Shown one piece after another: positions 2,084 through 27,993 of a DNA stretch of 64,000 nt (within the stretch, counting starts at the first letter, position 1; each line of letters starts with the position of its first letter). Origin of the DNA: Rouxiella chamberiensis (lineage in GTDB: Bacteria; Pseudomonadota; Gammaproteobacteria; Enterobacterales; Enterobacteriaceae). A program made the position numbers and the translations under genes. The notes under the pieces were generated by a model. It made no database searches. It saw only the letters and a program-made list of their open reading frames with translations, and was not told the DNA's origin. The stretch is from NCBI RefSeq assembly GCF_026967475.1, contig NZ_CP114058.1, positions 1,302,001-1,366,000 of the forward strand, written 5' to 3'.

Positions 2084-2157
2084 TCTGTATGTGAAACATA
2101 ATCGTACGGGCCACCTCGGCCTTTTGCGTTAAGTGAAACAAACTGTAAGGTGCCACT

Positions 2158-2946: not shown

Positions 2947-2980
2947 TTAACCGGTCCTTGTTTTATTCAATCACTACCAA

Positions 2981-3013
2981 AGAAAAGGCCGCCAATTATG
3001 GCGGCCTTTATTA
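2981..3013. terminator. Bidirectional intrinsic terminator between phoH and chaA
   Basis: AAGGCCGCC (2985-2993) pairs perfectly with GGCGGCCTT (3000-3008) around AATTAT. T-rich sequence follows on the plus strand and an A-rich run precedes it, so it can serve convergent phoH and chaA. Confidence 0.85.
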
Positions 3014-3066
3014 TTTCAGCTCGGCTCAATAGGGCGTCAAAGATTGACCGACGCCGTGCAGGGTAT

Positions 3067-8149: not shown

Positions 8150-10218
8150 CCTACCGCATTGGCGTAGATATCGGCGGGTCGTTCACCGATTTTGCCGTAC
8201 TGGACGAACGCGACAACCGCATTCGCACATTGAAGGTGCTGTCACGGCCGGACAGCCCCGGCAGCGAGATAACCACCGGTCTGAATCAACTGCGCGCGCT
8301 GTTTGGCATCGAACCTGCCGACGTGCATTACTTCACGCACGGCACAACCGTGGGCGTCAACGCGGTGATTCAACGAAAGGGCGTCAAACTGGCGCTGTTC
8401 ACCACCGAAGCCTTCGAAGATGTGCTTGAACTCGCACGGCTTAAGATCCCCCATATTCATGACTTGTTCTCGCGACGTCCCGAACCGCTTGTCTCGCGCG
8501 ACCGGGTGTTTGCGATAAAAGAGCGCACCGACAGTCAGGGCCGGATCCTGCGGGCCGTCTGCCCCGACTCGGTACGTGTTGCGGTTGAAAAAGCCCGTGC
8601 GCTCGGCTGCGAAGGCATTGTCGTCTCTCTGCTGCATGCCTACCGCAATGGTCATAATGAACGGCAGGTGCGGGAGATTATCGCCGAGATGGCCCCCGAG
8701 ATGCTGACCTCCTGTTCTGCCGAAATCTGGCCCATTATTCGCGAGTATGAACGCACAATCACCGCCACCATCAATGCCTATGTGCAGCCGAAGGTGATTC
8801 ACTATCTCGGTGCCTTTGAACAGGCGCTGAATGAAATGGGCGTGCCCGTGCCGCCGCGCATGACCAAGTCCAACGGCGGGGTGATGAGCGTGGCGCAGGC
8901 CAAGGCCGAATGCGTGCAGATGATCCTTTCAGGCACCGCCTCGGGAGTGATTGGCGCCGGGTATATTGCCGACCAGTGCGGGTTCGACAAGCTGTTGAGT
9001 CTGGATATCGGCGGCACCAGCGCCGACGTTGCGGTGATTCAGCACGGCAGGCCGGAATACGGCAGCGGGGAGGTGATTGGCGAGTTTCAGATCTTCATCC
9101 CGTCCGTGTCGGTGACTTCCGTGGGTCAGGGCGGTGGGTCACTGGCGTGGATAGACCGTCTTGGCGTCTTGCAGGTGGGGCCGGACAGCGCCGGGTCCTT
9201 GCCGGGGCCGGTATGTTACGGACGCGGCGGCACGCAGGCTACGGTCACGGATGCCTTTGCCGCCAGCGGTCTGCTCGGGCACGGCGCATTGGGTTACAGT
9301 GCGGTCAGCGTGAATGTCGAGGCCGCGCGCCGTGCGGTCGCTGCGCTTGCGCAACCGCTGGGTATTTCCATCGAAGAGACCGCCGAGACCGTCATTCAGC
9401 TGGCCATCTCCAGCATGTACACCGACACCAGCGGGCTGATTTCACGTTTTGGTCTCGACCCGCGTGAATTTTATTTTCTGGCCTTCGGCGGGGCTGGCCC
9501 GATGATGGGCTGCTATCTGGCCCGCGAGCTTAATATGAAAGGCGTGATTGTACCGCCGACACCGGGCGTGCTGTCGGCGCTGGGCGGATTGGTCGCCGAC
9601 ATCAAAAACGATTTCATTCTCACCTTGTACCGCGAATTGACCGCGGATTGTCTGGACGACATTGTCGCCGCCGCCGCGTCATTGCAGCAGGACGCCAAAC
9701 GCTGGCTGCAGCGCGAACATGGCGCGGAGCTGGCTTTTACCCTGCAGTTTTCGGCCGATATGCGCTATCGCGGCCAGTCGTTTGAGATTGAGGTGCCGCT
9801 TGAAAACCGCTGGCTTGAGGCCGATGCGAAAGACGGGGCGCTTGTCGCTCTCGGCAACGCCTTCAATCGGCAGCACGAACAGCTTTTCGGCCACAGCGAT
9901 GCACAGGCGGCGATTCAAATCATCAACCTGCGGCTGGTGATTACCTCGCCGACGTCCCGACCCGACCTGCAAACGCTTGCGCGCAGTGCTGCGCCCGTTG
10001 TGGCGCAATCGGTAGTGAATGCCTGGGTCGACGGCGCGTTTCACGACGTCATGGTCGTGCGTCGCAGCACCTTGCTCGCCGGTCAGCGCTTTGACGGCCC
10101 GGCAATTGTCGCGCAGGACGACTGTACCACCTGTGTGCCCACCGGCATGCGCGTGGAGGTCGACGACTTTGGCAATCTGATCATCACCTCAGTGGAGGCC
10201 GCACCGCATGGCTATTGA
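8146..10218 (+). CDS. hyuA: Hydantoinase/oxoprolinase subunit A (HyuA family)
   Basis: ATP-dependent ring-opening subunit of the hydantoinase/5-oxoprolinase/acetone-carboxylase family, acting with HyuB on cyclic amides such as N-methylhydantoin or 5-oxoproline. The 690-aa cytoplasmic protein starts MTYRIGVDIGGSFTDFAVLD, the N-terminal Hydant_A_N phosphate loop. It has the FTHGTTVGVNAVI motif, a second ATP motif SLDIGGTSADVAVI and the FGGAGPMMGCYLAREL segment. The start overlaps the acetyltransferase stop and the end overlaps hyuB by 11 bases, so the genes are coupled. Specificity between hydantoin, oxoproline and other lactams cannot be read from the motifs. Confidence 0.92.
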   Translation: MTYRIGVDIGGSFTDFAVLDERDNRIRTLKVLSRPDSPGSEITTGLNQLRALFGIEPADVHYFTHGTTVGVNAVIQRKGVKLALFTTEAFEDVLELARLKIPHIHDLFSRRPEPLVSRDRVFAIKERTDSQGRILRAVCPDSVRVAVEKARALGCEGIVVSLLHAYRNGHNERQVREIIAEMAPEMLTSCSAEIWPIIREYERTITATINAYVQPKVIHYLGAFEQALNEMGVPVPPRMTKSNGGVMSVAQAKAECVQMILSGTASGVIGAGYIADQCGFDKLLSLDIGGTSADVAVIQHGRPEYGSGEVIGEFQIFIPSVSVTSVGQGGGSLAWIDRLGVLQVGPDSAGSLPGPVCYGRGGTQATVTDAFAASGLLGHGALGYSAVSVNVEAARRAVAALAQPLGISIEETAETVIQLAISSMYTDTSGLISRFGLDPREFYFLAFGGAGPMMGCYLARELNMKGVIVPPTPGVLSALGGLVADIKNDFILTLYRELTADCLDDIVAAAASLQQDAKRWLQREHGAELAFTLQFSADMRYRGQSFEIEVPLENRWLEADAKDGALVALGNAFNRQHEQLFGHSDAQAAIQIINLRLVITSPTSRPDLQTLARSAAPVVAQSVVNAWVDGAFHDVMVVRRSTLLAGQRFDGPAIVAQDDCTTCVPTGMRVEVDDFGNLIITSVEAAPHGY

Positions 10219-12225
10219 TGGACGCAATCTGCAAATTCTGGCGAACTACTGCGCCGCCGCAGCCGACGCGATGGCGTTTACGCTGATGCGCACCGCACAT
10301 TCGACCTTTGTCAAAGAGACGGAGGATTTCTCCTGCCAGATAGTGACCCGCGAGGGCTTGGCGTTTGCTTCGCCGCGCAGTTTTGGTGCACCCTGGTACA
10401 GCGGCATCGATTACGCGCCCGTTTTGGCGCTGATTGAGGACTACCACGAGGGCGATATCTGCATTACGAATGATGCCTATGCCGGGAATGTGGCGACGCA
10501 TTCACCCGATATCCACATCTGGAAGCCGGTATTTTATGGCGGGCAGATAGCCTGTTTCGTGGTTGGGCATATCCATAATACCGACGTCGGCGGCGCAGTA
10601 CCGGCTTCTTTGTCGCGTTCCTGACTGAAATCGTGCAGGAAGGGCTACGCATTCCGCCGCTGAAAATTATCACCGACGGCAAAATCAATGAAGATGTGGC
10701 ACGAATCATGCGTCTTAATGTCAGAGCGCCGGATCAAAACTGGGGTGATTTCAATGCCCAGATAGCGTCGGTCAATATGGGCGAACGCAAGGTGCTTGAG
10801 ATTATCGCGCGTTTTGGCATTGAGGATTTCCTGCAGGGCATTGAGGGAATTCTGGATTATGCCGAGCAGCAGGCGCGCAATATCATCGCCACCTTGCCTG
10901 ACGGAGAGTATTTCTATGCCGATTATGCCGATGAAGATACTGATGGCGGTTATCCCTGCCGCATTGCGGTTACGCTGCGCATTACTGGCGAGACCCTTGA
11001 ACTGGACTACACTGGCAGCGATCCGCAGCTCACGTCCTCACTGAACATGCCCACCGGCGGTCGCGAGCGGCATCCGCTGGCGCTGGTCGGGGTTACCTAT
11101 GTGCTGTCGACGCTAGACCGGCGGCTGTTGCTCAATGCGGGCACGCTGCGACCCACGCGTGCTATCCTGCCGAGCGGCACGGTAATGAATTGCGACTCTC
11201 CTGCGGCGGTGGGAATGCGTTCCCTGACCTGCGCGGTTTCGCAAATCGCAACCTTAGGGGCGTTTTCGCTGGCGGTACCGGACCGTTTGCCTGCCAATTC
11301 ACCGGGCGGTAATTCCATCGTCAATATCAAGACGGTGGATGCCCGCAGTCGAACGGTGGTCGCGTCGATAGGTCCGGTGGGCGGTGGCGCGGGCGGCACG
11401 CCAAAACACGACGGTCCCGATGGCTCCGGCGGGCTTTCTGCCTTTCTCAAAAACACTCCCGTGGAAATCAACGAAGCCGAAGTGCCTATCCTGATTCGCC
11501 GCTATGGCCTGTCGCCCGACAGCGGCGGTGCCGGGCGTTATCGCGGCGGACTGGCGACCGTGATGGAGTTTGAGGTCACCGCGCCAAACACGGTTGTCAC
11601 GGCGCGAAACCGCAACCGCTCGGTATTTGCCTCGGCGGGCGCGGTGGGCGGCAACGCCGGAAAAAACTCGCGCTTTCAGACCCATCCCGATACGCCGCAC
11701 TGTATCGAACACGGCAATATTGATGTCATCAAATGCGGACCCGGCGACATCGTGCGTTTGACCGGCCCCGGCGCGGGCGGCTACGGGCCTGCCCGCGAAC
11801 GCCTGCCGCATAGCGTGTTGCGAGACGTGCAGTGCGGATTCGTTTCCGTCGAGGGCGCACGTCGTGATTATGGTGTGGTTATTCTTGATGGCGAGATTGA
11901 TATCGCCGCCACCGAAATAGCCCGCAGCCAGATGCCCGATACCCGAGCCACCCACTTTGATTACGGCAGCGCCCGAACGGCCTTTGAACAGGTGTGGACA
12001 CGCGAACGTTATGCCATTCTCACCGACTTTCTTGCCGCCGCGCCGGTGGTGTGGCGGCATTTCCTCAAACATCAGGTGTTTGCCGCGGTCGCCGCCGAGC
12101 CTGCCGTGCATGATGAACAACAGATGCAGGCACAAATGGCCGATATCTTGCATGAGTTGACGCGCCGATTTCCGGCGATTGTCGTTCGCCAGTCCCGGAC
12201 GGAGGACAATCTTCATCAACCATAG
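10208..12225 (+). CDS. hyuB: Hydantoinase/oxoprolinase subunit B (HyuB family), with a frameshift near 10620
   Basis: Partner of HyuA in ATP-dependent hydrolysis of a cyclic amide. Two open frames are joined here: residues to VPASLSRS in the first, then LTEIVQEGLRIPPLKI in a second. Adding one C in the CC at 10620-10621 fuses them into a continuous product of about 672 aa with the expected family sequence. The upstream half has the HyuB N-terminus (AMAFTLMRTAHSTFVKE); the downstream half has GGRERHPLALVG, NSPGGNSIVNI and the glycine-rich GPVGGGAGGTPKHDGP. No other defect is seen, so a sequencing error is more likely than a true pseudogene. The MocR gene starts 11 bases later. Confidence 0.85.
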
Positions 12226-12236
12226 GGCGAGGCGCG

Positions 12237-13775
12237 ATGTTTACTCTTTCTGTTCCCAACATGCCGGACCGCAAGGCGCAAGGTTCCCTACAGTCCAGGC
12301 TGCGCGAAAAAATTTCCGAAGCGATTGCCTGTGGGGATTTCGAGCCGGGCCAAACGCTGCCGTCGACGCGCATAATGGCCGGGCAGCTTGATATTTCGCG
12401 CAATACCGTGACTCTGGTGTATGAAGCGCTGGCAGCGGAAGGCGTGCTTGTCTCCGCACAGCGCCGCGGATTTTATGTCGCGCCGGACGCCGTTTCTCGC
12501 CTGCCGCAGAGTCACGCGGTGTCGTCGCGGCCAATGACGGTCGATTGGGACAGCAAGCTCGTCATCAATCCCGCGGCGATGGAGCACATCACACACCCTC
12601 GGGATTGGCGCAGCAAGAAATACACCTTTATGTATGGTCAGCACGATCGCTGGATCTTCCCGATTGATAACTGGCGTAAATGTAGCCGCGATTCCCTGTC
12701 GTTGCATGATATGTATGACTGGACGGTGGATTATGTCGATGAAGACGATCCGGTGCTGCTCGACGCGTTTCGTCGCCGTGTGCTGCCACGGCGCGGGTTT
12801 ACGGCCTCAACACAGGAAGTGCTGGTCACCGTCGGGGCGCAGCACGCGCTGTATCTGGCTATTCAATGTCTGCTTCGACCGGGCATGGTGGTGGGCATTG
12901 AAGATCCGTCCTATCCCGATGTTCGCAATCTCATGCTGTTTCACGGTGCGGTGCTCAAGCCGCTGCCGGTCGACGAAGACGGCGTTATTCTCTGCGAGGC
13001 GATGAAAAGCTGCGACATTATCTATGTAACACCGAGCCATCAGTCACCGACCACTGTGACGCTGTCACTTTCTCGACGTCGGCAGTTGCTGGAAATGGCC
13101 AGCGCACACGATTTTATTATCATTGAAGATGACTATGATACGGAATCGCGCTTTGGCCGCTTTCCGTCGAGCGCCCTGAAGTCCATCGATACCGAAGGGC
13201 GCGTGGTGTATGTCACCAGCCTGTCCAAATTGCTGTCACCGGGGCTGCGAGTCGGTTTTCTGGTTGGCCCGCTGCCGTTTATTCGTCAGGCCAGGGCGCT
13301 GCGGCGAATGAGCATTCGTCATCCGGCGGCCAATAATCAGCGCACCGTGGCGCTGTTTCTGAAAGGCGGTTATTACGAATCGCTGTTGAAGCGCTTTCAT
13401 GATGAATACGCAGGGCGCTGGCAAACGCTGCAACAGGCATTGGCGCGATACATCCCCTGTGCGAACATTGCCAGTTCCGAAGGCGGCAGTTCCGTGTGGC
13501 TGAAATTTCCGCCCTCTATCAATACTCGCGAACTGTCGCAGCGTGCCTATCGGCGCGATGTCTACATTCAGCCCGGTGAAAGCTATTTCCTGCAGGACCC
13601 GCAGCGCACGCGGCCTACGCACTATATGCGTCTCGGCTTTTCTTCTATCAAGATGGAAGATATTGCCGACGGTATTGCTATCGTCGGCGCGGTGGTGGAC
13701 GAGATGCTCGGCGAAATCAACGCCGAGCCGTTATTCGCCGAGCACGATCACGCGGTCGGCGGAAGCCACGGTTGA
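12237..13775 (+). CDS. MocR-type regulator (GntR helix-turn-helix fused to aminotransferase fold)
   Basis: PLP-sensing transcription regulator of 512 aa. Residues about 15-85 form a GntR winged helix (SLQSRLREKISEAIACG, LPSTRIMAGQLDISRNTVTLVYEAL). The remainder is a class I aminotransferase fold with GAQHALYLAIQCLLRPG, the EDDYDTE motif and the PLP lysine in TSLSKLLSPGLRVGF. It is the last gene of the acetyltransferase-hyuA-hyuB run, so it is the likely regulator of that operon, possibly sensing an amino compound through PLP. Its 3' end overlaps the tail of the convergent exporter gene by 45 bases (13731-13775). PdxR and GabR are relatives, but context argues for a hydantoin-specific role. 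Confidence 0.88.
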   Translation: MFTLSVPNMPDRKAQGSLQSRLREKISEAIACGDFEPGQTLPSTRIMAGQLDISRNTVTLVYEALAAEGVLVSAQRRGFYVAPDAVSRLPQSHAVSSRPMTVDWDSKLVINPAAMEHITHPRDWRSKKYTFMYGQHDRWIFPIDNWRKCSRDSLSLHDMYDWTVDYVDEDDPVLLDAFRRRVLPRRGFTASTQEVLVTVGAQHALYLAIQCLLRPGMVVGIEDPSYPDVRNLMLFHGAVLKPLPVDEDGVILCEAMKSCDIIYVTPSHQSPTTVTLSLSRRRQLLEMASAHDFIIIEDDYDTESRFGRFPSSALKSIDTEGRVVYVTSLSKLLSPGLRVGFLVGPLPFIRQARALRRMSIRHPAANNQRTVALFLKGGYYESLLKRFHDEYAGRWQTLQQALARYIPCANIASSEGGSSVWLKFPPSINTRELSQRAYRRDVYIQPGESYFLQDPQRTRPTHYMRLGFSSIKMEDIADGIAIVGAVVDEMLGEINAEPLFAEHDHAVGGSHG

Positions 13776-15833
13776 CGGCCGATGCGCGATAATCACCCGG
13801 GTGATGTCGAGGGCGGCAATAGAGGCGTTGATGTGCGCTTCGTTTTCGACATCGAGATGGCTGGTGGCTTCGTCGAGGAACAGAATGCCCGGACGACGGT
13901 AGAGCGCGCGGGCAATAAGAATACGCTGTTTCTGACCGCCGGAAAGCGAGCCTCCCAATTCGGTAATCAAGGTTTCGTAGCCCATCGGCATCGCCATGAT
14001 GTCCTCATGAATATTACAGCGCCGGGCGCAATCGACGAGGTGTTGTACGTCCCGTTCATCTTCGAAGCTTGCGATATTCTCGGCAATCGACCCGGCAAAC
14101 AGTGTATCTTCCTGCAAGACGCAGGCGGTACAGGCACGGTAATTATTCGCCCCGACCTTACTGATATCCATGCCGTTCAGGCGTACTTCGCCCGACGTGG
14201 GCGGCAGCAGACCCGCCAGAATCTTCATCAGCGTCGTTTTGCCCATGCCCGAGGGGCCGGTAATGGCGACACTTTCACCGGCTTCAACCTTGAGATTGAG
14301 GTGATTTATCAGCGGGGCCGACAGCACGTCGTACTGGAAGGAGACGTTTTGTACCTCCAGTGCAGCGGCCTCGCCGACCCGCAGCAGGGCGCGTTCCGGC
14401 ACATTATGCTCGACGTCGGTCAGCGCGATATCGGCGATGCGTTCGGCGTGCAGCGACAGCATCTTCAGTTGCAGCACCATATCGAGCAGGTTGGCGGCGC
14501 GTTCCGAAAACTGACCGCGATAGGTATTGAATGCCACAAACATCCCGAGCGTCATGTGGCCGTCTATCACCTGGGTTGCCCCGAGCCACAGCAGCACAAT
14601 CTGGTCCAGCGTGGCAATCAGCGTGTTGCCACCCTGAAACAGCATTTCGTAGCGCGTTTTACGCACGGTGGCATTGGCCGTATCGATATTCATGTTCAAC
14701 CAGCGCTGGGCGCGATTAGGAGATAATCCCAGCGCTTTCAGTGTGCCCATGCCGTAAAGTGTTTCCATAAAGTGCGAACCGGCGCGGGCGGATTTCACCA
14801 GCTGCTCTTCGGCAATCTGCCGGTAGGTGGGATAGGTCGACAGACGAAACAAGCAGTAAAGTGTCGTAAACCCGAGGATGACCCACACAAGCCAGCCCCC
14901 GTAAAGCACCATCATCACGATAAGTCCGACCGACATGATGCCGTCCATCAGACTGTTCACGACATTACTGGTCAGCGTGGTGCGCAGGGTGTCGAGAGAG
15001 ACAAAGCGCGACTGAATATCCCCCAGTTTGCGCTTTTCGAAATAAGACAACGGCAGCGCCAGCAGGTGGTCGAACAGCCGCGCCTTCCACTGCACGTCAA
15101 TCAGCGTGGTCATGACCAGCTGCGTCCAGGACTTGAGAATGCTTATCCCGGTTCGAAACAGCACAAAAAACAGCAACCCGAGGCAAATGAGCGTCAGCAG
15201 ATTGGGGTCCTGCGCGGGAATAACGTGGTCCATTACCAACTGCATGCCGACCGGCAGCAGGAGATTGACGGATTCGATCAGGAGCGAGAAGCAGAACAGT
15301 TTGGTGAGTGTGGCAAACAGACCGCCGACGTTGCTGACCATGCGGCGCAAATTCAGCCGGTTGAGATTCTTCCTGTGGCTGAAATCGGCATCGGGCCACA
15401 GCTCCAGCGCCACGCCGGTGAAATGGGCCGAGACTTCCTGCGTGCCAAGCACGCGCTTGCCGAACGCGGGGTCATGCACCACGATGCGCCCGCGCGTTGC
15501 CGAAATCAGCACTACAAAATGATTCATGTCCCAGTGCAGAATGCAGGGGGTCTTGAGCTCGGTCAATTCATCGATATCAAGTCGCAACGCGCGGGATTTC
15601 AGGTTTAGCTGCCGGGTCATCGCCATCAGCGTTTTCAGGGTAACGCCACGGGTCGAGACATCAAACTGCTGGCGCAGGCTGAGCAGGTCGGTTTGCCGCC
15701 CATGATAACCGCAGATCATCGCTACGCAGGCCAGCCCGCATTCGGCGGCCTCGGTCTGAATAATCTGCGGCACCCTGCGGCGAAAGCCGAAGTGCAGTCT
15801 CTCGACCAGTGCATCGAGCTGTAGCTTGTTCAT
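13731..15833 (-). CDS. Bacteriocin/microcin exporter with C39 peptidase and ABC domains (CvaB-like), module 1
   Basis: Inner-membrane ABC exporter that cleaves double-glycine leaders and drives peptide secretion through a HlyD-like adaptor and TolC. The 700-aa protein has the C39 cysteine peptidase at the N-terminus: Gln26 and Cys32 in QTEAAECGLACVAM, His105 in HWDMNHFVVL and Asp121 in VHDPAFG. About six membrane helices follow. The nucleotide-binding domain shows GPSGMGKTT, LSGGQKQR and ILFLDEATSHLD. All catalytic residues are present, so processing and transport should both work. It overlaps the adaptor gene stop and closes the module peptide-peptide-adaptor-exporter. No outer-membrane channel is encoded nearby, so a chromosomal TolC is presumably used. 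Confidence 0.93.
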   Translation of the reverse strand: MNKLQLDALVERLHFGFRRRVPQIIQTEAAECGLACVAMICGYHGRQTDLLSLRQQFDVSTRGVTLKTLMAMTRQLNLKSRALRLDIDELTELKTPCILHWDMNHFVVLISATRGRIVVHDPAFGKRVLGTQEVSAHFTGVALELWPDADFSHRKNLNRLNLRRMVSNVGGLFATLTKLFCFSLLIESVNLLLPVGMQLVMDHVIPAQDPNLLTLICLGLLFFVLFRTGISILKSWTQLVMTTLIDVQWKARLFDHLLALPLSYFEKRKLGDIQSRFVSLDTLRTTLTSNVVNSLMDGIMSVGLIVMMVLYGGWLVWVILGFTTLYCLFRLSTYPTYRQIAEEQLVKSARAGSHFMETLYGMGTLKALGLSPNRAQRWLNMNIDTANATVRKTRYEMLFQGGNTLIATLDQIVLLWLGATQVIDGHMTLGMFVAFNTYRGQFSERAANLLDMVLQLKMLSLHAERIADIALTDVEHNVPERALLRVGEAAALEVQNVSFQYDVLSAPLINHLNLKVEAGESVAITGPSGMGKTTLMKILAGLLPPTSGEVRLNGMDISKVGANNYRACTACVLQEDTLFAGSIAENIASFEDERDVQHLVDCARRCNIHEDIMAMPMGYETLITELGGSLSGGQKQRILIARALYRRPGILFLDEATSHLDVENEAHINASIAALDITRVIIAHRPSTVASADRVIVLGE

Positions 15834-17133
15834 AGACTTGTCCTGCTGTTAACCGGTCCGGTAATGCTTTTTTCAGGCTGTAATAAGGCGAGAGCATCCA
15901 CTGATACAGCGGGCGCTGCTCGAGAAACAGGGTCGATTCGGCCTGCATTCCGCTAGACAGCGCAAGAGGTTGGCCGTGCCAGAGCAGCGACCCCCGGTCG
16001 AGCGAGACGATTGCCTTGAAATAACTGCCATCGGCCGTGGCGGCATTGACGTGTGGCGCGCTGACGTAACCCGCCATCTCTTTTGCGGTGCTCGGGGCAC
16101 TGGCGACGGAGATAATCTTGCCCGGAAACTGGCCATATTTCTGGAAGGGAAAGGCGGCGTAGCTGACGTTGATTTTCTCGCCCAAATGCACGTAAGGGCG
16201 GCTGGCGTCGGGCAACCAGGCGACCAGATAGAAATCATGTTCGCTTTGCGGCACCAACTGTACCAGGCTGTCACCCGCATTGACCATCTGGCCCGGCGTG
16301 ACACTCAGCGACGAGATATTTCCGGCGGTAGGGGCTGTGATCATGATGAGGTTTTTGGCGTTGGCCTGCGCCAACTCGCGGTCAAGCCCCTGCTGCTGAT
16401 ACAGCGACTGCGAGATCTCGTTGTCGAAATCGGCGGCTTTGGTCACTTTTTCGCTTTGCAGATTGCTGATTTGCAATGACTGCTGAATAACCTGCGCGGT
16501 CAGGCTCTGATAGGCGCTTTGCTGCTGGTAATAAAGGTAGCGCTGGTTATTGAGCTGATCGGTGGTAATCAACCCTTTTTTCAACGAGTCAGAGTAGGAG
16601 TCTAGGCTTTTACCCATGGACGCCAATCCTTCCTTTGCCGATGCCACCATGTTATTGAGGCCGACCTGCGCCCGCGTATATTGGTCAAGTTGCTGTTGCA
16701 GGTTGGCAAGCGTCGCGGTTTTGTTGTTGCGCTGCTGGGCGATAATGTCGTCCAGTTGACGTCGCTGTTTATTGATGGCGTCCAGTGTCGAGGTACTGAC
16801 ATTGCCGGATTGCGAAACCTGACTGACATCAATCTGATACAGCGGCATTCCTGCTTCGACCTGCTGACCGTTTTGCACCAGCAATCTGGAAATCACGCCC
16901 TGCTGCGGCGAAAAGAGATTGATGGTATAGGGTTGGGTGATGACTTCTGCGTTGACGTTAATGCGGCGGGTATAATTCGCAAAGGTCAGAAACAGCAGCA
17001 GCAAGACAATAAAGGTGCCGGTCAAGGTCACGGTGACCCATAACGGCCAGCCTTTGAGCAGCAGCGCCTTGCCGAGCCACTGGGTTTGCTGCTGGGTGGT
17101 GGCTTCCTGTCGGAAAAGTGCGGACATCAACAT
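15830..17133 (-). CDS. HlyD/CvaA-like membrane-fusion protein, module 1 (frameshift at 15868-15873)
   Basis: Periplasmic adaptor linking the peptide exporter to TolC. It has a short cytoplasmic N-terminus, one membrane helix (VTVTLTGTFIVLLLLFLTFA), a biotinyl-lipoyl-like segment (LFSPQQGVISRLLVQNGQQVEAG), long coiled-coil hairpin arms rich in Gln and Leu, and a second lipoyl half (ITAPTAGNISSLSVTPGQMV). As written, the frame runs on into the exporter gene to 15661. Restoring one A in the six-A run (plus-strand T at 15868-15873) gives an ending ...LKKSITGPV that matches the paralogue's LKTSIMAPA and stops at 15830, overlapping the exporter start as ATGA. The corrected length is about 434 aa. 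ATG 17127 is an alternative start. Confidence 0.87.
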
Positions 17134-17234: not shown

Positions 17235-17429
17235 TTAAACCAGTGCTTTCAGCACGTCGTTTACACCTGACTCAACGCTGCTCACCGCGTCAGGAATAGT
17301 GGTGTTCACCAAAGTGTCCACCGCCGTGCCGACGGTGTTGGCAACCGTACCGACGACATTACCCAGCAGGCTTGAAATCAGACCGCCACCGGCTACTTGC
17401 TCAACTTCGACCATATTCAGTTCTTTCAC
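17235..17429 (-). CDS. Microcin-like peptide precursor 1 with double-glycine leader
   Basis: A 64-codon gene with a GTG start (17427-17429) and a good ribosome site (TGGAGA). The leader MKELNMVEVEQVAGG is 15 residues, the length and pattern of class II microcin leaders, and ends in GG for cleavage by a C39 exporter peptidase. The 49-residue mature part begins GLISSLLGNVVGTVANTV. It has no cysteine or aromatic residue, a small-residue and valine periodicity, and net negative charge (five acidic residues, one lysine). This differs from cationic pore-formers and recalls glycine-zipper two-peptide toxins such as Caulobacter Cdz; that resemblance is inference. Paired with peptide 2. No adjacent immunity gene is evident. 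Confidence 0.8.
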   Translation of the reverse strand: MKELNMVEVEQVAGGGLISSLLGNVVGTVANTVGTAVDTLVNTTIPDAVSSVESGVNDVLKALV

Positions 17430-17462
17430 GATAATCTCCAGATTTTATTGACCCGACTCGAT

Positions 17463-17486
17463 GACTTTCGTGTAAACACGCAAGTC
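17463..17486 (-). other. Hairpin between the two microcin-like peptide genes
   Basis: GACTT-t-CGTGT, a two-base AA turn and ACACG-c-AAGTC form a ten-pair stem with one mismatch in the 116-bp gap between the peptide genes. No U-tract follows. It may set the ratio of the two peptides. Confidence 0.5.
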
Positions 17487-17545
17487 GAGCGCGGGTGATG
17501 ATAATGAGAGCGAGAAACGGGAACGCGAGGTTCCGTCCGTGCGGC

Positions 17546-17728
17546 TTAAACCAGCGCGGTGACGACGTCTGATACGCCGGTTGCGACGCTGTTTACCGCA
17601 TTAGGAATCGTGGTATTAACGATGGGGCTTACCAGCGGGCTCACCGTATCAACGACGTTGCCTACCAGACTTGAAAGTAAACCGCCGCCTGCTACCTGCT
17701 CGACTTCAACTGAATTCAGTTCTTTCAT
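17546..17728 (-). CDS. Microcin-like peptide precursor 2 with double-glycine leader
   Basis: A 60-codon gene starting at ATG 17728, with AGAGGTGA immediately upstream; an upstream in-frame TTG is less likely. The leader MKELNSVEVEQVAGG differs from peptide 1 at one residue. The 45-residue mature part begins GLLSSLVGNVVDTVSPLV and shares with peptide 1 both the N-terminal GL-x-SSL-x-GNVV and the C-terminal VNTTIP-x-AV-x-SV-x-x-GV pattern, but the middle is shorter. It lacks cysteine and aromatic residues and is acidic. Peptide 2 is transcribed first, then peptide 1, the adaptor and the exporter. Likely a duplicated pair acting together as a two-component secreted peptide; its activity is not shown by sequence. 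Confidence 0.8.
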   Translation of the reverse strand: MKELNSVEVEQVAGGGLLSSLVGNVVDTVSPLVSPIVNTTIPNAVNSVATGVSDVVTALV

Positions 17729-18200
17729 AGTCACCTCTGTTATTGACAAATAAGTTAAGTAAAAAGCAAGAAAATAGATAAGTAAAATTTAACAGTAATC
17801 GCTGATTATTAAATGTGCTGAAACATTTAGCCCCTCGGCGATGACGGAAATTACTCTAAACTATCTTGATGAGTTTGACTTTTGGTTTTCTTAAAAAAGA
17901 TTAAAATTCTTATTTATTAGCATCATAAAAAATAACGTGCCGATTATTATCTTTATAACCAGAGGCTTGGCGGTATTGGGCATGACACTCTTAACGGATA
18001 AACACGGCATTAATAGATAAGTTAAATTGCATGATTAAATTTAGTACGACATTAATACATTAAATTTATAGGGGTATTGGTAACTTATTACGCAACGAGA
18101 GAGGTCAATGAATGTCGCGGCGGTGTCGATATTTCGGCCAAGGCAGGGCGAGAGCGAAAATAGCCGGTCAAACCGGCAGACTTATTACAGACAGGAGTCA
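17729..18200. other. A+T-rich gap holding the peptide-operon promoter and module 2 terminator
   Basis: Strikingly A+T-rich DNA between the start of peptide 2 and the end of the module 2 exporter. Several TATA-rich stretches could serve as the minus-strand promoter, but I cannot single one out. Short plus-strand frames (17 and about 27-40 codons) lack ribosome sites. Any immunity gene for the peptides would have to be very small to fit here. Confidence 0.5.
18154..18177 (-). terminator. Intrinsic terminator after module 2 exporter
   Basis: GCCGGT (18163-18168) and ACCGGC (18172-18177) form a perfect stem with a three-base loop, followed on the minus strand by TATTTTCGC, 23 bases after the exporter stop. 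Confidence 0.7.
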
Positions 18201-20300
18201 TTACTCGCCCAATATAATCACCCGATCGGCAGAAGCAATGGTGGAAGGCCGATGGGCGATAATGACGCGAGTCATCTTCAGCGCCGCAATCGAGGCATTG
18301 ATATGCGCTTCGTTTTCGACATCGAGATGGCTGGTGGCTTCGTCGAGAAACAGAATGCCGGGTCGCCGGTACAGCGCCCGCGCCAGCAACAGCCGCTGTT
18401 TTTGACCACCGCTTAAACTGCCGCCCAATTCGCTTATCAAGGTTTCATAGCCCATCGGCATGCGCAGAATATCCGCATGAATGTTGCAGCGGCGAGCGCA
18501 ATCGACCCCATGTTCGGGGTCAGGCTGCGGGTCGAATCCGGCAATGTTCTCGGCAATCGATCCTGCAAACAAAGTGTCATCCTGCAATACACAGGCGATA
18601 CAGGCGCGATAGTTGTTGACTCCAATCTTGCTGATATCCAGCCCGTTAACCCGTATCTCCCCGGATGTGGGCAAAAGTAAACCGGCAAGCATTTTCATCA
18701 ACGTGGTTTTGCCCTGTCCGGAAGGGCCCGTAATCGCCACGCTTTCTCCGGCGGCGACCGTCAGCGTGAAGTGGGAGATAACGGGCGGTGACAATGGATC
18801 GTATTGAAATGACACGTCATGCACCTCGAGCGAGGCCGCCCCTCCGGGACGCAGCATCGTGCGTGTCGGCATAGAATGTTCCGCTTCATTCAATGCGATA
18901 TCCGCGATGCGTTCCGAATGCAGTGACAGCATTTTCAACTGCAACAGCATGTTGAGCAGGTTGGCGGCGCGTTCGGAAAACTGACCGCGATAGGTATTGA
19001 ATGCCACAAACATCCCGAGCGTCATATGACCGTCGATGACCTGGGTTGCCCCCAGCCACAGCAGCACTATCTGGTCGAGTGTTGCAATCAGCGTGTTGCC
19101 GCCGGAAAAAGCATCTCGAAGCGCGTTTTTCGCACCATGACGTTGGCGGTGTCAATATTCATATTCAGCCAGCGCTGGGCGCGTTGGGGAGACAGACCCA
19201 GCGCTTTCAGTGTGCCCATGCCGTACAGGGTTTCCATAAAATGCGAGCTGGCGCGGGCGCTTTTGACCAGCTGGTTCTTCTGATATCTGCCGATAGGTCG
19301 GATAGGTAGCAAGGCGAAACAGGCAGTAAAGCAGCGTAAAGCCAAGCACGACCCAAACCAGCCATCCTCCGTACAATATCATCATCACAATCAGCCCGAC
19401 CGCCATGATGCCGTCCATCAGGCTGTTGACCACATTGGTGGTGAGCGTGGTGCGCAGAGTATCCAGCGAGATAAAACGCGACTGAATGTCCCCCAGTTTG
19501 CGCTTCTCGAAATAGGCCAGCGGCAGGGCGAGCAGATGGTCGAACAGCCGGGCTTTCCATTGCACGTCAATCAGCGTGCTCATGACCAGTTGAGTCCAGG
19601 ATTTAAGCATGCCGATGCCGGTGCGAAACAGCACGAAAAACAGCAGACCCAGACAAATCAGCGTTAAAAGCGCGCTGTCCTGCGCGGGAATGACGTGGTC
19701 CATCACCAATTGCATGGCGACCGGCAGTAAAAGATTTACTGACTCGATGAGTAACGAGAAGCAAAACAGCTTGGTCAGGGCGCCGAGCAGTCCCCTGACA
19801 TTGCCAACTAGACGGCCTAAATTCAGGCGATGGCGTTTTTTTGTGCGGCTGAACTCGCTGTCGGGCCATAGCTCGAGCGCCACGCCGGTGAAATGCAGCG
19901 ACACTTCATTCAGACTTAACACGCGACGTCCAAAGGCCGGATCCTGAATCACCAGCCGCCCACGCCGCACCGCAACCAGCACGACGAAATGATTCATGTC
20001 CCAATGCAAAATACACGGCCTTTTCAGCGCGTTCAGATCACTGATGTCGACTTGCAGGGCGCGCGATTTCAGCTGCAACTGGCTGGCGATAGCCATCAAG
20101 GTGTTAAGGGTCACGCCGCGAACCGACACCTCAAACTGTTGGCGCAGGCTCGGCAAATCGGTTTGCAAGCCATGATAGCCGCAGACCATCGCCAGGCAGG
20201 CGAGACCACATTCGGCGGCCTCGGTTTGAATGATGGGCGGCACGCGGCGGCGAAAACCGAAATGCAGCTTCTGTGTCACCTCATGCCATGTCTCATTCAT
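18201..20300 (-). CDS. Bacteriocin/microcin exporter with C39 peptidase and ABC domains (CvaB-like), module 2 (two indels)
   Basis: Paralogue of the module 1 exporter along its whole length: leader peptidase, six membrane helices and ABC domain. Three frames must be joined. An extra base near 19273-19274 breaks QISEEQLVKSA, and a missing base near 19102-19105 breaks EMLFPGGNTLI. The two indels cancel and give about 699 aa against 700 for module 1. Cysteine (QTEAAECGLACLAM), histidine (HWDMNHFVVL) and aspartate (IQDPAFG) of the peptidase are kept, as are GPSGQGKTT, LSGGQKQR and ILFLDEATSHLD. The start overlaps the adaptor stop by eight bases. Apart from the indels there is no decay, so it is probably functional. 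Confidence 0.85.
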
Positions 20301-21579
20301 GAGCGGGCGCCATAATGCTGGTTTTCAGGCGGTAATAGGGCGCGAGCATCCACTGATACAGCGGACGCTGCTCGAGAAACAGCGTGGTTTGGGCCTGCAT
20401 GCCGCTGGTCAGGCGCAACCGCTGGCCGCGCCAACTCATCGACCGATCATCAAGAGCAATAATGGCCTTGAAATACGCCCCGCTTATCGTGCCGTTGGCG
20501 ACGCGCGGCGCACTGATATAACCCTGCATCTCTTTGTCGGTGCTCGGCGCGTCGGCGACAGACAGCACGCGACCCGGAAACTGACCGTATTTTTCAAACG
20601 GGAAGGCGGCATAGCGAATCGTGATGATTTGGCCCCGTTTAATATAGGGGCGGCTCTCGTCGGGAAGCCAGGCTATCAGGTAAAACGCCGAGCCGGAGAG
20701 GGGCACAAGTTGCGCCAGACTGTCGCCCGCATTCACCATTTGTCCGGCCGTAACACTCAACGACGAAACGCGGCCTGCGGATGGCGCGTTGATCATCAGC
20801 AGATTTCTCACATCCGCCTGCGCCATTTCGCGATCCAGTCCTTGCTGCTGATAGCGCGACTGCGAGATCTGGTTATCGAACTCTGCCGATTTTGTCACCT
20901 TGCCACTCTGTAGGCCGCTAATTTGCAGTGACTGCTGAATCATCTGCGCGTTCAGGCTTTGCAGCGAACTTTGCTGTTGATAATACAAATAACGCTGATT
21001 ATTGAGCTGATCGGTGGTGATCAACCCGCGCTTCAATGAGGTGGCGTAGGAAGCGAGACTGGCCCGCATGGCGTTGAGTCCTTCCTGTGAGGAGGCGACC
21101 ATTTCGTTTAGCCCGCGTTGAGCAGCCTGATATTGCTCGAGCTGTTGTTGCAGATTGGCGAGTGTGGCCCGTTTATTGCCTTCGAGCTGGTAGATGATAT
21201 CGTCGAGTTGCTGATGCTGCCTCGCGATCGCGGCGAGTGTTGACGTGCTGGCGTTACCGGCCTGTGTATTGCGGCTCAGGTCAATCTGATAGAGCGGCGT
21301 GCCGACGCCGACGCGTTCTCCGTTGCCCACCAGCAGTTTGGCTATCACGCCCTGTTCAGGGGAGAAAAGGTTGATGGTTTGCGGCTGGGTAATGATTTCG
21401 GCATTCACATTGATGCGCCGCGCATAGCTCGCAAAAATAAGTGCGGCCAGCAGCGCGAAGATAAACGCCAGCGTAAGCATCACGATAATCCACGGCGGCC
21501 AGCCTTTGAGCAGCAGCGCCTTGCCGAGCCACTGTGACTGCTGATGCGTCGCGACTTCAGGGCGAAAGAGTGGGGGCAT
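20293..21579 (-). CDS. HlyD/CvaA-like membrane-fusion protein, module 2
   Basis: Adaptor paralogue of 428 aa, starting MPPLFRPEVATHQQSQWLG and sharing GKALLLKGWP with the module 1 adaptor. It has one N-terminal membrane helix (VMLTLAFIFALLAALIFASYA), a lipoyl half-motif (LFSPEQGVIAKLLVGNGERV), long glutamine-rich coiled-coil arms and a second half-motif (INAPSAGRVSSLSVTAGQMV). This copy is intact and shows where the frameshifted copy should end. It overlaps the exporter start. Its upstream neighbour is the small ORF at 21677-21862, matching the position of the peptide genes in module 1. Confidence 0.93.
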   Translation of the reverse strand: MPPLFRPEVATHQQSQWLGKALLLKGWPPWIIVMLTLAFIFALLAALIFASYARRINVNAEIITQPQTINLFSPEQGVIAKLLVGNGERVGVGTPLYQIDLSRNTQAGNASTSTLAAIARQHQQLDDIIYQLEGNKRATLANLQQQLEQYQAAQRGLNEMVASSQEGLNAMRASLASYATSLKRGLITTDQLNNQRYLYYQQQSSLQSLNAQMIQQSLQISGLQSGKVTKSAEFDNQISQSRYQQQGLDREMAQADVRNLLMINAPSAGRVSSLSVTAGQMVNAGDSLAQLVPLSGSAFYLIAWLPDESRPYIKRGQIITIRYAAFPFEKYGQFPGRVLSVADAPSTDKEMQGYISAPRVANGTISGAYFKAIIALDDRSMSWRGQRLRLTSGMQAQTTLFLEQRPLYQWMLAPYYRLKTSIMAPAHE

Positions 21580-21676: not shown

Positions 21677-21862
21677 TTATCTCAACGTTCCTATCAGAAT
21701 ATCTTCTGATTCAGCCGCGATGTCGCCGAGGTCACCGACTTCTTCTTTAGCCACTTCGTTCACGGTATTAAGTGCCTGCTTTGCATTTGCTGCCGCAATT
21801 GCCTGCAATTGAGAGACGCTCAAGCGGGTGCCGGAGGTCTGTATTAAGGGTATACGCCGCAC
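21677..21862 (-). CDS. Small ORF with leader-like N-terminus, possible degenerate or atypical secreted peptide
   Basis: A 61-codon frame (GTG start at 21862, no strong ribosome site) occupies the place of the peptide genes, 97 bases before the module 2 adaptor. Residues 14-25, LSVSQLQAIAAA, fit the double-glycine leader consensus L-S-x-x-E/Q-L-x-x-I-x-G-G except that the last two positions are Ala-Ala. The remaining 36 residues (NAKQALNTVNEVAKEEVGDL...) are acidic and helical, without cysteine, and unlike the other two peptides. It could be a substrate cleaved after AA, a decayed precursor, or not a gene at all. Confidence 0.4.
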   Translation of the reverse strand: MRRIPLIQTSGTRLSVSQLQAIAAANAKQALNTVNEVAKEEVGDLGDIAAESEDILIGTLR

Positions 21863-22367: not shown

Positions 22368-23827
22368 ATGCCGCAACTGCCCCTGAAGGATTCAACCCTC
22401 TATCGCCAGCAGGCGCTTATCGCTGGCCGCTGGGTCGATGCGCACAGTAAAGAGACTCTCGAGGTGAGTAATCCGGCAACCGGTGACATCATTGCCCGGG
22501 TTCCGGCGATGAATGAGCAGGATACCCGCGAGGCGATTATGGCCGCCGAGAATGTCCGTCACGAGTTTGCCGACACGCCCGCAGCAGAACGTGCTGCCAT
22601 GCTGGAAAGGTGGCATCAGCTGATCCTCGATAATACCGAAGATCTGGCGATCTTAATGACCGCCGAGCAGGGAAAATCTCTGGAGGAGGCGCGGGGTGAG
22701 GTGCGTTACGGCGCGAGTTTCGTGAAATGGTTTGCCGAAGAGGCACGCCGGATTTATGGCGAAACCCTCCCGCGCCTACCCGCGACCGCCGTATTCTGGT
22801 GCTTAAACAGCCCGTTGGCATTGCCGCTGCGATTACGCCGTGGAATTTCCCGATTGCGATGATTACCCGCAAATGCGCACCTGCCATAGCCGCAGGCTGT
22901 CCGATAATTGTCAAACCTTCGGATTTAACCCCGCTCTGCGCGCTGGCGCTGGCCGAACTCGCGACGCGCGCCGGGATCCCCTCCGGCGTTTTGCAGGTTG
23001 TGACCGGCATGCCGCAGGGCATCGGTGCCGAGCTGACGTCTAATCCGCTGGTGCGCAAACTGTCGTTTACCGGTTCAACCCGCGTAGGGCAATTGCTGAT
23101 GCGCCAATGTGCCGACTCCGTCAAGCGCCTGAGTTTCGAGCTGGGCGGAAATGCTCCCTTTATTGTTTTCGACGATGCCGACCTCGAATTGGCGATCGCA
23201 GGCGTTATGGTGAGCAAGTTCCGCAATGGCGGGCAAACCTGCGTCTGCGCCAATCGTATTCTGGTGCAGCGCGGCATTTACGACAAATTCGCGGCGCGGC
23301 TGGTGGAGGAGACGCAGAAGCTCAAAGTCGGCAACGGTTTCGAGCCTTCAACCACGATAGGCCCGCTTATCAATAAAGCCGCAGTCGAGAAGGTGAATCG
23401 TCATATCGATGATGCCCTGAGCCAGGGCGCGCGGGTGTTGACGGGCGGCATGGCAGAAGGTGACAGCCATTTTGCCAAACCGACCGTGCTTGCCGATGTG
23501 ACGTCGAGCATGCTTATCGCCAATGAAGAGACATTCGGGCCCGTCGCGCCGCTGTTCTGTTTTGACGATGAACAGGAAGCTATCGATTTGGCCAATGCCA
23601 CGCCGTTTGGATTGGCCGCCTATTACTTTACCGAAAACCTGCGCCGTTCGTGGCGGGTGGCGGAAAAACTCGAGTTCGGCATGGTAGGGCTTAATACGGG
23701 TTCTGTCTCGCTGGAAATAGCGCCATTTGGAGGGATTAAACTTTCCGGCATTGGTCGCGAAGGCGCGAAAGCCGGTATCGAAGAATATCTCGAAATGAAA
23801 TCTTTCCATATTGGCGGACTGAATTAA
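22368..23827 (+). CDS. NAD(P)-dependent succinate-semialdehyde-type aldehyde dehydrogenase (GabD-like), frameshift near 22770
   Basis: Aldehyde dehydrogenase that oxidises a semialdehyde, most like GabD, which converts succinate semialdehyde to succinate. The gene is split: the first frame ends after YGETLPR, and the second carries the expected APTRDRRILVLKQPVGIAAAITPWNFP. One extra C in the CCC at 22769-22771 unites them into about 486 aa. Later motifs are intact: FTGSTRVG, the general-base glutamate in FELGGNAPF and the catalytic cysteine in FRNGGQTCVCANR. GGAGAG precedes ATG 22368. A strong terminator follows, so it is a single-gene unit. The neighbouring GabT-like aminotransferase (38059) could supply its substrate. 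Confidence 0.85.
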
Positions 23828-26716: not shown

Positions 26717-27993
26717 ATGAAACTTGAATCATTTTGGCAGGCAACGGCACCGGTATTCACCGGTGCGGCGGCGGGCGAGCTTCCGGCAAAAGCCGAGGTG
26801 GTGGTCGTTGGAGGGGATTTACCGGGCTGTCTGCCGCTTACAATCTGGCGAAGGCTGGAGTCGATGTCGTGGTGCTGGAAGCGGGCGAGGTTCTGAGTCA
26901 GGCTTCGGGTCGCAACGGCGGACACTGCAACACCGGCGTGGCGCAAAACTTTGCCGGACTGGTTGACAGTGTCGGCCTCGAGCAAGCCTCTATCTATTAT
27001 CACGCCTACGCCGATGCGGTGAACTATGTGCACTCGGTGGTGCAGGAAGAGGCGATCGACTGCGACCTTATCCGCACCGGCAAGCTTAAACTCGCCAGCA
27101 AGGCCAAGCATTTCCCCTCGCTGGTTAAAACTTATGAACTGCTAAGGCGCACCGTCGACAGCAATGTCGAGCTGATTGATGCCAGCCATATTCGCGACGA
27201 AATCGGCTCCGACGCCTTTCACGGCGGTCTGCTGCAAAAAGGCGGCGGCCAGATGCACATGGGCAAGTTCGGCGTGGGGCTGGCGCAGGCCGCTGCGGCA
27301 AAAGGGGCGGTTATTCATGCGCATACGCCGGTTACCGGCCTGCAGCAGATTGACGGCCACCGTTACCGCGTCAGTACCGCACGCGGCGATATCGATGCCG
27401 GACGCGTGCTGCTTGCCACCGGCACCTCGGACAAAGGGCCGTTCGCCTGGTTTCAACGCCGTATCGTGCCGGTCGGCAGCTTTATTATCGCCACCGCGCC
27501 CCTGACGCCGGGCCAGCTCAAAGAGGCGTTTGTCAACAATCGCACTTATGTCACGTCGCTGAATATCGGTAACTATTTCCGCACAACGGCCGACAATCGT
27601 CTGATTTTCGGCGGGCGCGCACGTTTTGCCATCAGTAATCCTACGTCGGACGCACGCAGCGGTGCCGTGCTGCGTCAGGGGTTGAGTGAACTGTTCCCGC
27701 AACTGGCCGACGTAAGAATCGACTATTGCTGGGGAGGACTGGTGGATATGACCGCAGACAGGCTGCCACGCGCCGGTGAACACGAGGGCCTGTTCTATTC
27801 AATGGGCTACAGCGGTCACGGAACGCAAATGTCGGTGTACATGGGCAAAGTGATGGCAGCCTTGATAACCGGTCAACCGGTTGGAAATCCTTGGCAGCGC
27901 AGCCAGTGGGCCGCCATGCCGGGATATTTTGGCAAGCCCTGGTTTTTACCGGTGGCGGGCCTGTATTACAAAGCCAAAGACAAGGTTTCCTGA
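26717..27993 (+). CDS. FAD-dependent amine/amino-acid oxidoreductase (DAO family, PuuB-like), frameshift at 26813
   Basis: Flavoprotein of the D-amino-acid-oxidase fold that oxidises a C-N bond, releasing an aldehyde or ketone. The true start is ATG 26717 (MKLESFWQ), in a frame that breaks after VVVVGG. Adding one G to the GGGG at 26813-26816 restores VVVVGGGFTGLSAAYNLAKAG, the FAD dinucleotide-binding motif, and gives about 425 aa. SGRNGGHCNTG is typical of gamma-glutamylputrescine oxidase relatives; a late GLFYSMGYSGHGTQMS binds the isoalloxazine side. It sits between the HAD hydrolase and the importer binding protein. The substrate is inferred to be an imported amine or N-substituted amino acid. 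Confidence 0.85.

What the first reader, a model, noticed from the sequence alone, without database searches (positions are those of the whole stretch)
17235..17728. Paired acidic, cysteine-free microcin-like peptides with a class II microcin leader
Seen: two adjacent small genes share a 15-residue leader, MKELN(M/S)VEVEQVAGG, and similar mature peptides rich in Val, Gly, Ser and Thr, without cysteine or aromatics and with net negative charge. They are followed by a C39 exporter and adaptor. Known: class II microcins and Caulobacter Cdz use such leaders and T1SS exporters. Inferred: a two-peptide secreted system, perhaps glycine-zipper-like. It is unlike the cationic or siderophore-linked microcins I know, and no immunity gene is visible, so it may be a new bacteriocin or a surface-associated peptide pair.
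Basis: partly seen in the sequence, partly recalled or inferred. Interest (0 to 1): 0.85.

Follow-up and report, generated by a model that had tools for sequence, protein, structure and literature searches.

The report
Exported acidic helical peptides without immunity
Two small genes in a Rouxiella-like bacterium make acidic helical peptides that a dedicated exporter should trim and release; relatives carry one to several such peptides and no protective immunity gene could be recognised beside those examined, so they look more like secreted surface-active peptides than a two-part antibiotic, although killing is not ruled out.

Summary
In detail: pepA (17546-17728, minus) and pepB (17235-17429, minus) share a 15-residue double-glycine leader and have acidic mature parts of 45 and 49 residues without cysteine or aromatics. 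They behave as real genes (mature dN 0.26, dS 1.57) in front of an HlyD adaptor and a C39 ABC exporter with an intact Cys-His-Asp triad. The reading is partly right. Relatives carry arrays of paralogues: two here, five in Serratia sp. M24T3 and in genome G005. Neither peptide has a glycine zipper, and acidity is usual for microcins (PMC10233263 passage). Both mature parts are strongly amphipathic helices. Their HlyD lies in a 100/100-supported group of 21 adaptors; the 21 cargos I measured from it are acidic and Cys-free, and no transmembrane immunity candidate lay beside any peptide that the scan could test, whereas it found such ORFs at three outgroup loci. A second array in M24T3 has near-identical leader DNA on unrelated mature parts. 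I favour surface-active or matrix peptides; bacteriocins without immunity protein are a close rival. New variant of a known kind.

The parts
17546..17728 (-). pepA: GG-leader precursor, 60 aa (15-residue leader + 45-residue mature peptide)
17235..17429 (-). pepB: GG-leader precursor, 64 aa (15 + 49), GTG start
15661..17133 (-). HlyD1, periplasmic adaptor of cassette 1; the frame runs on past the end seen in relatives and overlaps the next gene by 173 bases
13731..15833 (-). ABC1: C39-peptidase ABC exporter (PCAT), 700 aa, Cys32/His105/Asp121, Walker A and LSGGQ present
20293..21579 (-). HlyD2, adaptor of the second cassette, 70% identical to HlyD1
18201..20300 (-). ABC2, second C39-ABC exporter; frame interrupted near 19.1-19.3 kb (decay or sequencing error)
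17729..18200 (-). 472-base spacer upstream of pepA with stretches that match the spacers before peptides in M24T3, G005 and R. badensis (presumed promoter region)
21677..21862 (-). 61-aa ORF in the place where relatives have cassette-2 peptides; no canonical GG leader; probably not a substrate

Best explanation
pepA and pepB are substrates of the dedicated type I system HlyD1/ABC1 (with a TolC, inferred): the C39 domain cuts after the GG and the 45- and 49-residue mature peptides leave the cell. Outside, they act as acidic amphipathic helices, two in pepA with a break at Thr-Ile-Pro, that associate with membranes or surfaces. I think they are surface-active or matrix peptides made as partly redundant sets (functional analogue: EbfG1-4 of Synechococcus), not a two-peptide bacteriocin with an immunity protein. 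Shown: genes, leaders, exporter residues, selection, amphipathic sequence, linkage to the exporter, lack of a recognisable adjacent immunity gene. Inferred: cleavage, secretion, surface action, role. For the part 'exported GG-peptide array' alone my confidence is about 0.93.
For: Leader, exporter and triad. Purifying selection: pepA/pepB mature dN 0.26, dS 1.57; R. badensis/M24T3 72-aa peptides 0.35, 1.11. Mean helical hydrophobic moment above all 400 shuffles for both mature peptides, z 5.5 and 4.9; AlphaFold gives helices 6-39 and 43-59, pLDDT only 61. A related Rahnella/Ewingella/Rouxiella peptide: one long helix, pLDDT 84.5; mature dN 0.03-0.18 and dS 0.51-1.38 in 5 pairs, a sixth pair with L077 dN 0.51 and saturated dS; beside the exporter in 11 of the 11 genomes with a strong match among 392. 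HlyD tree: 8 Rouxiella, 10 Rahnella-type and 3 further adaptors in one group, 100/100. Charge -1 to -6 and no Cys in 21 of 21 measured cargos of that group. Immunity scan: no TM candidate in the 5 Rouxiella-type records with a scanned peptide, in 10 of 10 Rahnella-type loci, or in L079 and L080; same-strand 2-3-TM ORFs 3-47 bases from the peptide in L064, L065, L015. Precedent: EbfG1-4 (PMC4997328, passages).
Against: 17 class II microcins of S. marcescens were confirmed as antibacterial (PMC13101503 abstract), so the prior for killing is high. M24T3 cassette 2 puts unrelated mature parts behind near-identical leader DNA, a pattern usual for antagonism (recalled). Bacteroides GG bacteriocins lack an immunity protein (PMC10233263 passage), so its absence does not exclude killing. 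The scan cannot see immunity genes under 45 aa, soluble ones, or unlinked ones; a hydrophobic 39-aa ORF lies on the same strand in the window's spacer (about 17891-18010), without relatives in the other regions compared. Lack of an adjacent TM ORF is also common outside the group. Some paralogues are weakly amphipathic (z 1.9, 2.1) and so are the 4 cassette-2 cargos (0.6-2.1). One cargo of the group has 12 GxxxG and two database relatives of the Rahnella-type peptide have one Cys (P0031, P0032). No expression, secretion or phenotype data.
Confidence: 0.45

Rival explanations
1. Antibacterial peptides (class II microcin-like or bacteroidetocin-like) that need no adjacent immunity gene: producers are resistant through receptor choice, export or an unlinked gene; arrays broaden the target range.
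For: GG leader + PCAT + adaptor; weak hits to PF10439 and PF17508; M24T3 cassette-2 array with near-identical leader DNA and unrelated mature parts, different again in G005 although the spacer and cassette 1 are 97.6-98.9% identical between the two; microcins are mostly neutral or anionic; GG bacteriocins without immunity protein in Bacteroides.
Against: No adjacent TM immunity candidate where the scan could test the group, whereas class II microcin systems are described with a cognate immunity protein (PMC9746304 passage); the Rahnella-type peptide is one conserved gene beside a conserved 184-266-aa ORF (ycjF-like by recall) in 10 of 10 loci, not a polymorphic one; no Cys and, by eye, no Gly/Ser-rich class IIb end.
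Confidence: 0.38
2. Two-peptide, contact-dependent bacteriocin of the Cdz type.
For: Two small GG-leader peptides with a type I exporter.
Against: No extended GxxxG zipper; no CdzI-like TM protein found; peptide number is 1 to 5 per cassette in the relatives seen; pepA and pepB are close paralogues.
Confidence: 0.05
3. Peptide pheromones or other signals exported by a PCAT.
For: PCAT-exported GG peptides include signals (PMC7018657, search listing only).
Against: I recognised no sensor kinase or Rgg-like regulator among the neighbouring ORFs, but only 9 proteins were run against family libraries; the nearby regulator is PdxR/MocR-like. Several paralogues rather than one peptide.
Confidence: 0.07
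4. A decaying locus without present function.
For: Frame interruptions in ABC2 and at the end of HlyD1; HlyD2 has a long branch; no GG peptide in front of HlyD2.
Against: pepA, pepB and ABC1 are uninterrupted, and the peptides show purifying selection; three metabolic genes of the window are frame-broken too, which points to sequencing error.
Confidence: 0.05

Closest known systems
Class II microcins of Enterobacterales (MccV type; S. marcescens set of PMC13101503)
   Same: GG leader, C39-ABC exporter and adaptor, often several peptides per genome, neutral or anionic charge common
   Different: No recognisable adjacent immunity gene; 45-49-residue amphipathic cores without Cys; Pfam MccV and Bacteriocin_IIc match pepB and Bacteriocin_IIc matches pepA only below cut-off, from residue 1 to 25-51
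EbfG1-4 / PteB biofilm peptides of Synechococcus elongatus (PMC4997328 passages, PMC9981879 abstract)
   Same: Four adjacent small GG proteins, exported with a C39 transporter, partly redundant; the word immunity does not occur in PMC4997328
   Different: Cyanobacterial, 6-7 kDa after maturation; EbfG1-3 form amyloid; sequences not compared here
Cdz system of Caulobacter (PMC5380434, passages)
   Same: Type I exporter with two small secreted peptides; possible surface association
   Different: Cdz has glycine zippers and the three-TM immunity protein CdzI; neither found here
Bacteroidetocins (PMC6671954, listing; PMC10233263, passage)
   Same: GG leader, no immunity protein
   Different: Class IIa-related broad-spectrum toxins; sequences not compared here
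Nap peptides of Neisseria gonorrhoeae (PMC11798529, abstract and one results section)
   Same: Set of three GG peptides, helical, without detectable antimicrobial activity
   Different: Cationic, 16-36 residues, C39 peptidase plus FapF homologue, a LagC-like immunity gene; role in autolysis
Staphylococcal beta-type phenol-soluble modulins (recalled)
   Same: About 44-residue Cys-free amphipathic peptides in tandem sets, exported without a separate immunity protein (all recalled)
   Different: No leader, Gram-positive; PF05480 (accession recalled) is not among the families matched at E <= 1 by the 22 members of A4. Analogy only

Membership tests
Class II microcin | N-terminal leader ending in GG or GA | tested here: met
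Class II microcin | C39-peptidase ABC transporter with Cys32, His105, Asp121 (CvaB numbering, PMC9746304 passage) | tested here: met
Class II microcin | Membrane fusion protein (HlyD) | tested here: met
Class II microcin | Adjacent cognate immunity protein, usually 51-216 aa with TM helices | tested here: not met
   none in the window, in 4 related Rouxiella-type records with peptides, or in 10 Rahnella-type loci; found in L064, L065, L015. Small, soluble or unlinked ones not excluded
Class II microcin | Antibacterial activity | not testable with these tools
   needs an assay
Class II microcin | Match to a curated family model above cut-off (supporting, not strictly defining) | tested here: not met
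   pepB: PF10439 16.8 bits against 27.1, PF17508 13.9 against 27; pepA: PF10439 14; no NCBIfam hit
Cdz two-protein system | Glycine zipper GxxxGxxxG in the mature peptide | tested here: not met
Cdz two-protein system | Multi-TM immunity protein CdzI | tested here: not met
Cdz two-protein system | Two different peptides acting together | tested here: inconclusive
   two close paralogues here, other numbers in relatives; joint action needs an assay
EbfG-like biofilm peptides | Several GG peptides plus C39 transporter | tested here: met
EbfG-like biofilm peptides | Needed for biofilm, located at cell surface or matrix | not testable with these tools
   needs deletion and localisation
EbfG-like biofilm peptides | Sequence relation to EbfG | not tested
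   EbfG sequences were not fetched

The most novel reading that the evidence does not exclude
A group of type I exporters in Yersiniaceae (Rouxiella, Rahnella, Ewingella and kin) is specialised for acidic amphipathic-helix peptides that need no immunity protein: Enterobacterales counterparts of phenol-soluble modulins or EbfG matrix peptides. In Rouxiella one cassette keeps a conserved set and a second one trades unrelated mature parts behind a near-identical leader block.
Probability: 0.33. Interest if true: 0.75.

Novelty: new variant of a known kind. Interest (0 to 1): 0.5.

Why it matters
A GG leader beside a PCAT is commonly taken as the mark of a bacteriocin. Here is an exporter group in which the measured cargo is short, acidic and mostly helical and no adjacent immunity gene could be recognised, while the same scan recognises one at three loci with longer, cysteine-bearing cargo. 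That gives a concrete test of whether some predicted microcins are something else (matrix, surfactant, signal), and the M24T3 array (same leader DNA, unrelated mature parts) shows cargo exchange at a GG-peptide locus.

Tried and rejected
Two-peptide reading: not supported by array sizes and the close kinship of pepA and pepB. Glycine zipper: not supported by motif counts. Mobile element origin: pepB has no tblastn match in 72,556 plasmid records; megablast of 12 kb around the locus gives only short matches, each at most 4% of the query, in 7 plasmid records; none in 50,697 phage records; no adaptor relative confirmed among 131 pattern hits in IMG/VR. So it looks chromosomal. The adaptor has relatives below 60% identity in 1,257 plasmid records, best 47.1%; the six regions I opened carry other GG-like ORFs. 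ABC2 as a proven pseudogene: not claimed. The 61-aa ORF as a cassette-2 substrate: blastn found no match to the leader block there. PDB sequence searches with both peptide profiles gave only matches at E 0.2-0.74, taken as chance. Promoter and terminator scans were at shuffle level. No fold search was run, because the pepA model is of low confidence and the other is a single helix. R. badensis peptides lie at the ends of two contigs (C17, C31); that they form one array is inference. An extended search for adjacent membrane ORFs is limited: of 49 records, 9 had no GG-like ORF and were not testable (L068, L081, L082, L051, L053, L057, L062, L011, L016), and the only hit in L083 was an HU-like protein.

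Full report
What is there. On the minus strand, in transcription order: HlyD2 (21579-20293), ABC2 (20300-18201), a 472-base spacer, pepA (17728-17546), 116 bases, pepB (17429-17235), 101 bases, HlyD1 (17133-15661), ABC1 (15833-13731), then a convergent MocR/PdxR-like regulator. pepA and pepB carry the leaders MKELN(S/M)VEVEQVAGG and mature parts of 45 and 49 residues, charge -2 and -3, pI 4.05, no Cys and no aromatic residue. ABC1 has Cys32, His105 and Asp121, the residues that the cinful pipeline requires (PMC9746304, passages).

Real genes. Between pepA and pepB the mature part has dN 0.26 and dS 1.57, the leader 0.08 and 1.1; between the R. badensis and M24T3 72-aa peptides the mature part has 0.35 and 1.11 (own Nei-Gojobori script on short sequences, so rough; dS is saturated for pepA against its M24T3 relative).

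Distribution. The profile search of 5.8 billion proteins gave 26 relatives at E <= 1; the organism names that are given are Rouxiella or Serratia sp. M24T3, and many rows have none. The single-sequence search gave 3 at E <= 10. A genome scan with the adaptor confirmed 2 loci of 59 pattern hits, R. badensis and Serratia sp. M24T3. The adaptor occurs at E <= 1e-40 in 4 of 6 genomes of the genus and in 83 of 392 of the family sample. The peptide profile A4 matches 36 of 392 at E <= 0.001 but only 2 of 392 below 1e-10, and 3 of 6 in the genus at E <= 0.01. So the window's peptides look like a Rouxiella speciality inside a wider GG-peptide class.

Arrays, not pairs. M24T3 has five peptides before cassette 1 (7275-9876 of L002) and three before cassette 2 (2060-3341). 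R. badensis has one at the end of contig C31 and three at the end of C17 beside an aldehyde dehydrogenase gene like the window's. The window has two, and none before HlyD2.

Cargo exchange. In M24T3 cassette 2 a 62-base block (ribosome-binding site plus leader) is 98-100% identical in three copies and a 300-base spacer stretch 88% in two; copies are 537-550 bases apart, while the mature parts have no evident relation. A stretch of the spacer resembles the start of HlyD2, so the unit seems to have copied part of the adaptor gene (my reading). G005 has a different mature part there again, although the spacer between cassettes, HlyD1 and ABC1 are 97.6, 98.8 and 98.9% identical between the two; HlyD2 and ABC2 are 90.6 and 92.5%.

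A group with its own cargo. I fetched 40 regions from the upper part of the list and six plasmid regions. A midpoint-rooted tree of 51 HlyD rows puts the 8 Rouxiella adaptors, 10 Rahnella-type ones and 3 more (L079, L080, L083) together, support 100/100. The Rahnella-type loci carry one peptide, MKQLTE..., transcribed away from the exporter; it is found strongly in 11 of 392 genomes (a twelfth at E 1.6e-4 is another cargo), all 11 with the exporter beside it, and it is named 'chemotaxis protein' in Rahnella, Ewingella and Rouxiella records. I found no convincing GG peptide in L083. In 21 measured cargos of the group charge is -1 to -6 and Cys absent; 5 of 7 SGAG-type cargos of the neighbouring group are cationic, all with 2-11 GxxxG; 3 of 3 long cargos are cationic with two Cys (rows picked by me, not drawn at random). 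Exceptions inside the group: one L079 cargo has 12 GxxxG, and two database relatives of the Rahnella-type peptide have one Cys.

Amphipathic helices. The mean hydrophobic moment of both mature peptides exceeds all 400 shuffles (z 5.5 and 4.9), as does that of the 7 Rahnella-type peptides tested. It is weaker in some paralogues (z 1.9-3.3) and in cassette-2 cargos (0.6-2.1). AlphaFold: pepA helices 6-39 and 43-59 at pLDDT 61, low confidence; Rahnella-type peptide one helix 17-62, mean pLDDT 84.5.

No immunity gene recognised. Among 216 ORFs of at least 30 aa from 18 regions, the only clusters shared between the window's peptide spacer and other regions are the peptides and their antisense shadows; the window's region before HlyD2 shares one short non-hydrophobic ORF (33-73 aa) with M24T3 and G005. 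A hydrophobic 39-aa ORF on the same strand in the window's spacer (about 17891-18010) has no relative in the other regions; it is shorter than the known immunity range of 51-216 aa but is not excluded. A scan of 49 records for TM ORFs of 45-220 aa within 1.5 kb of a GG-like ORF could test 40 of them and gave candidates in 6: L064, L065 and L015 at 47, 3 and 3 bases on the same strand, L013 at 250 on the other strand, L048 and L047 at 625 and 1344. None in the 5 Rouxiella-type records with a peptide (L068 had none in range), none in 10 of 10 Rahnella-type loci, none in L079 and L080. Most SGAG-type loci and the Klebsiella locus lack an adjacent one too, so the absence is wider than this group.

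Reading. The anatomy says exported GG peptides. For the role I weigh redundancy, no recognisable immunity, conservation of the Rahnella-type peptide and amphipathic helices (towards matrix or surface-active peptides, as EbfG1-4, PMC4997328 passages) against cargo exchange, the confirmed microcins of Serratia (17, PMC13101503 abstract) and the Bacteroides GG bacteriocins without immunity protein (PMC10233263 passage). I put 0.45 and 0.38 on the two.

Literature. Searches showed, in the rows listed (all but cut), no title or abstract start on these Rouxiella peptides; one paper that holds the words Rouxiella, microcin and bacteriocin (PMC6668396, on colicin Z) was not opened. Zero hits for the names asked: Serratia and Rahnella in PMC9746304; Rouxiella, Rahnella and Serratia in PMC13174018 and PMC11494933. 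Supplementary files were not readable, so a listing there is possible. What I saw: PMC13101503 abstract, section 5 and passages; PMC9746304, PMC10233263, PMC5380434, PMC8386478, PMC4997328 passages; PMC11798529 abstract and one results section; PMC9981879 abstract; PMC6671954 and PMC7018657 listing only.

Caution on the window. HyuB, an aldehyde dehydrogenase and an FAD oxidoreductase are split into two frames relative to relatives, so the frame breaks in ABC2 and HlyD1 may be sequencing errors.

Noticed in passing
window 18201-21579: Second HlyD/C39-ABC exporter pair upstream of the finding; its relatives in M24T3 and G005 stand behind a different peptide array.
   Followed up: yes
L002 2060-3341: Array of three GG peptides with 98-100% identical ribosome-binding-site and leader DNA and unrelated mature parts; the spacer holds a stretch resembling the start of the adaptor gene.
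   Followed up: partly
L069-L078, L025: Conserved GG peptide (63 aa; 59 in L077), named chemotaxis protein in databases, divergent from the exporter; the name looks like a misannotation of a helical secreted peptide.
   Followed up: partly
window 10208-12225, 22368-23827, 26717-27993: Hydantoinase B-like, aldehyde dehydrogenase and FAD oxidoreductase genes split into two frames relative to relatives: probable sequencing errors in the window.
   Followed up: yes
window about 17891-18010, minus strand: Hydrophobic 39-aa ORF in the spacer upstream of pepA, without relatives in the compared regions; the only hint of a membrane peptide there.
   Followed up: partly
L012 5110-5910: Two adjacent 121-122-aa glycine-rich GG proteins before HlyD/ABC and yjeJ/groEL on a Klebsiella plasmid record; no TM immunity candidate found.
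   Followed up: no
L047-L050, L055, L056, L058-L061, L063, L066, L084, L085: Group of SGAG-leader peptides with related exporters and no adjacent (within 600 bases) TM immunity ORF found; the seven measured are GxxxG-rich, better glycine-zipper candidates than the window's peptides.
   Followed up: partly
L068 6033-6221: Acidic GG peptide on the strand opposite to the cassette-2 exporter of R. badensis.
   Followed up: no
L002 10001-11257: HlyD1 of Serratia sp. M24T3 has an in-frame stop at the position of window residue 183 (draft assembly).
   Followed up: partly
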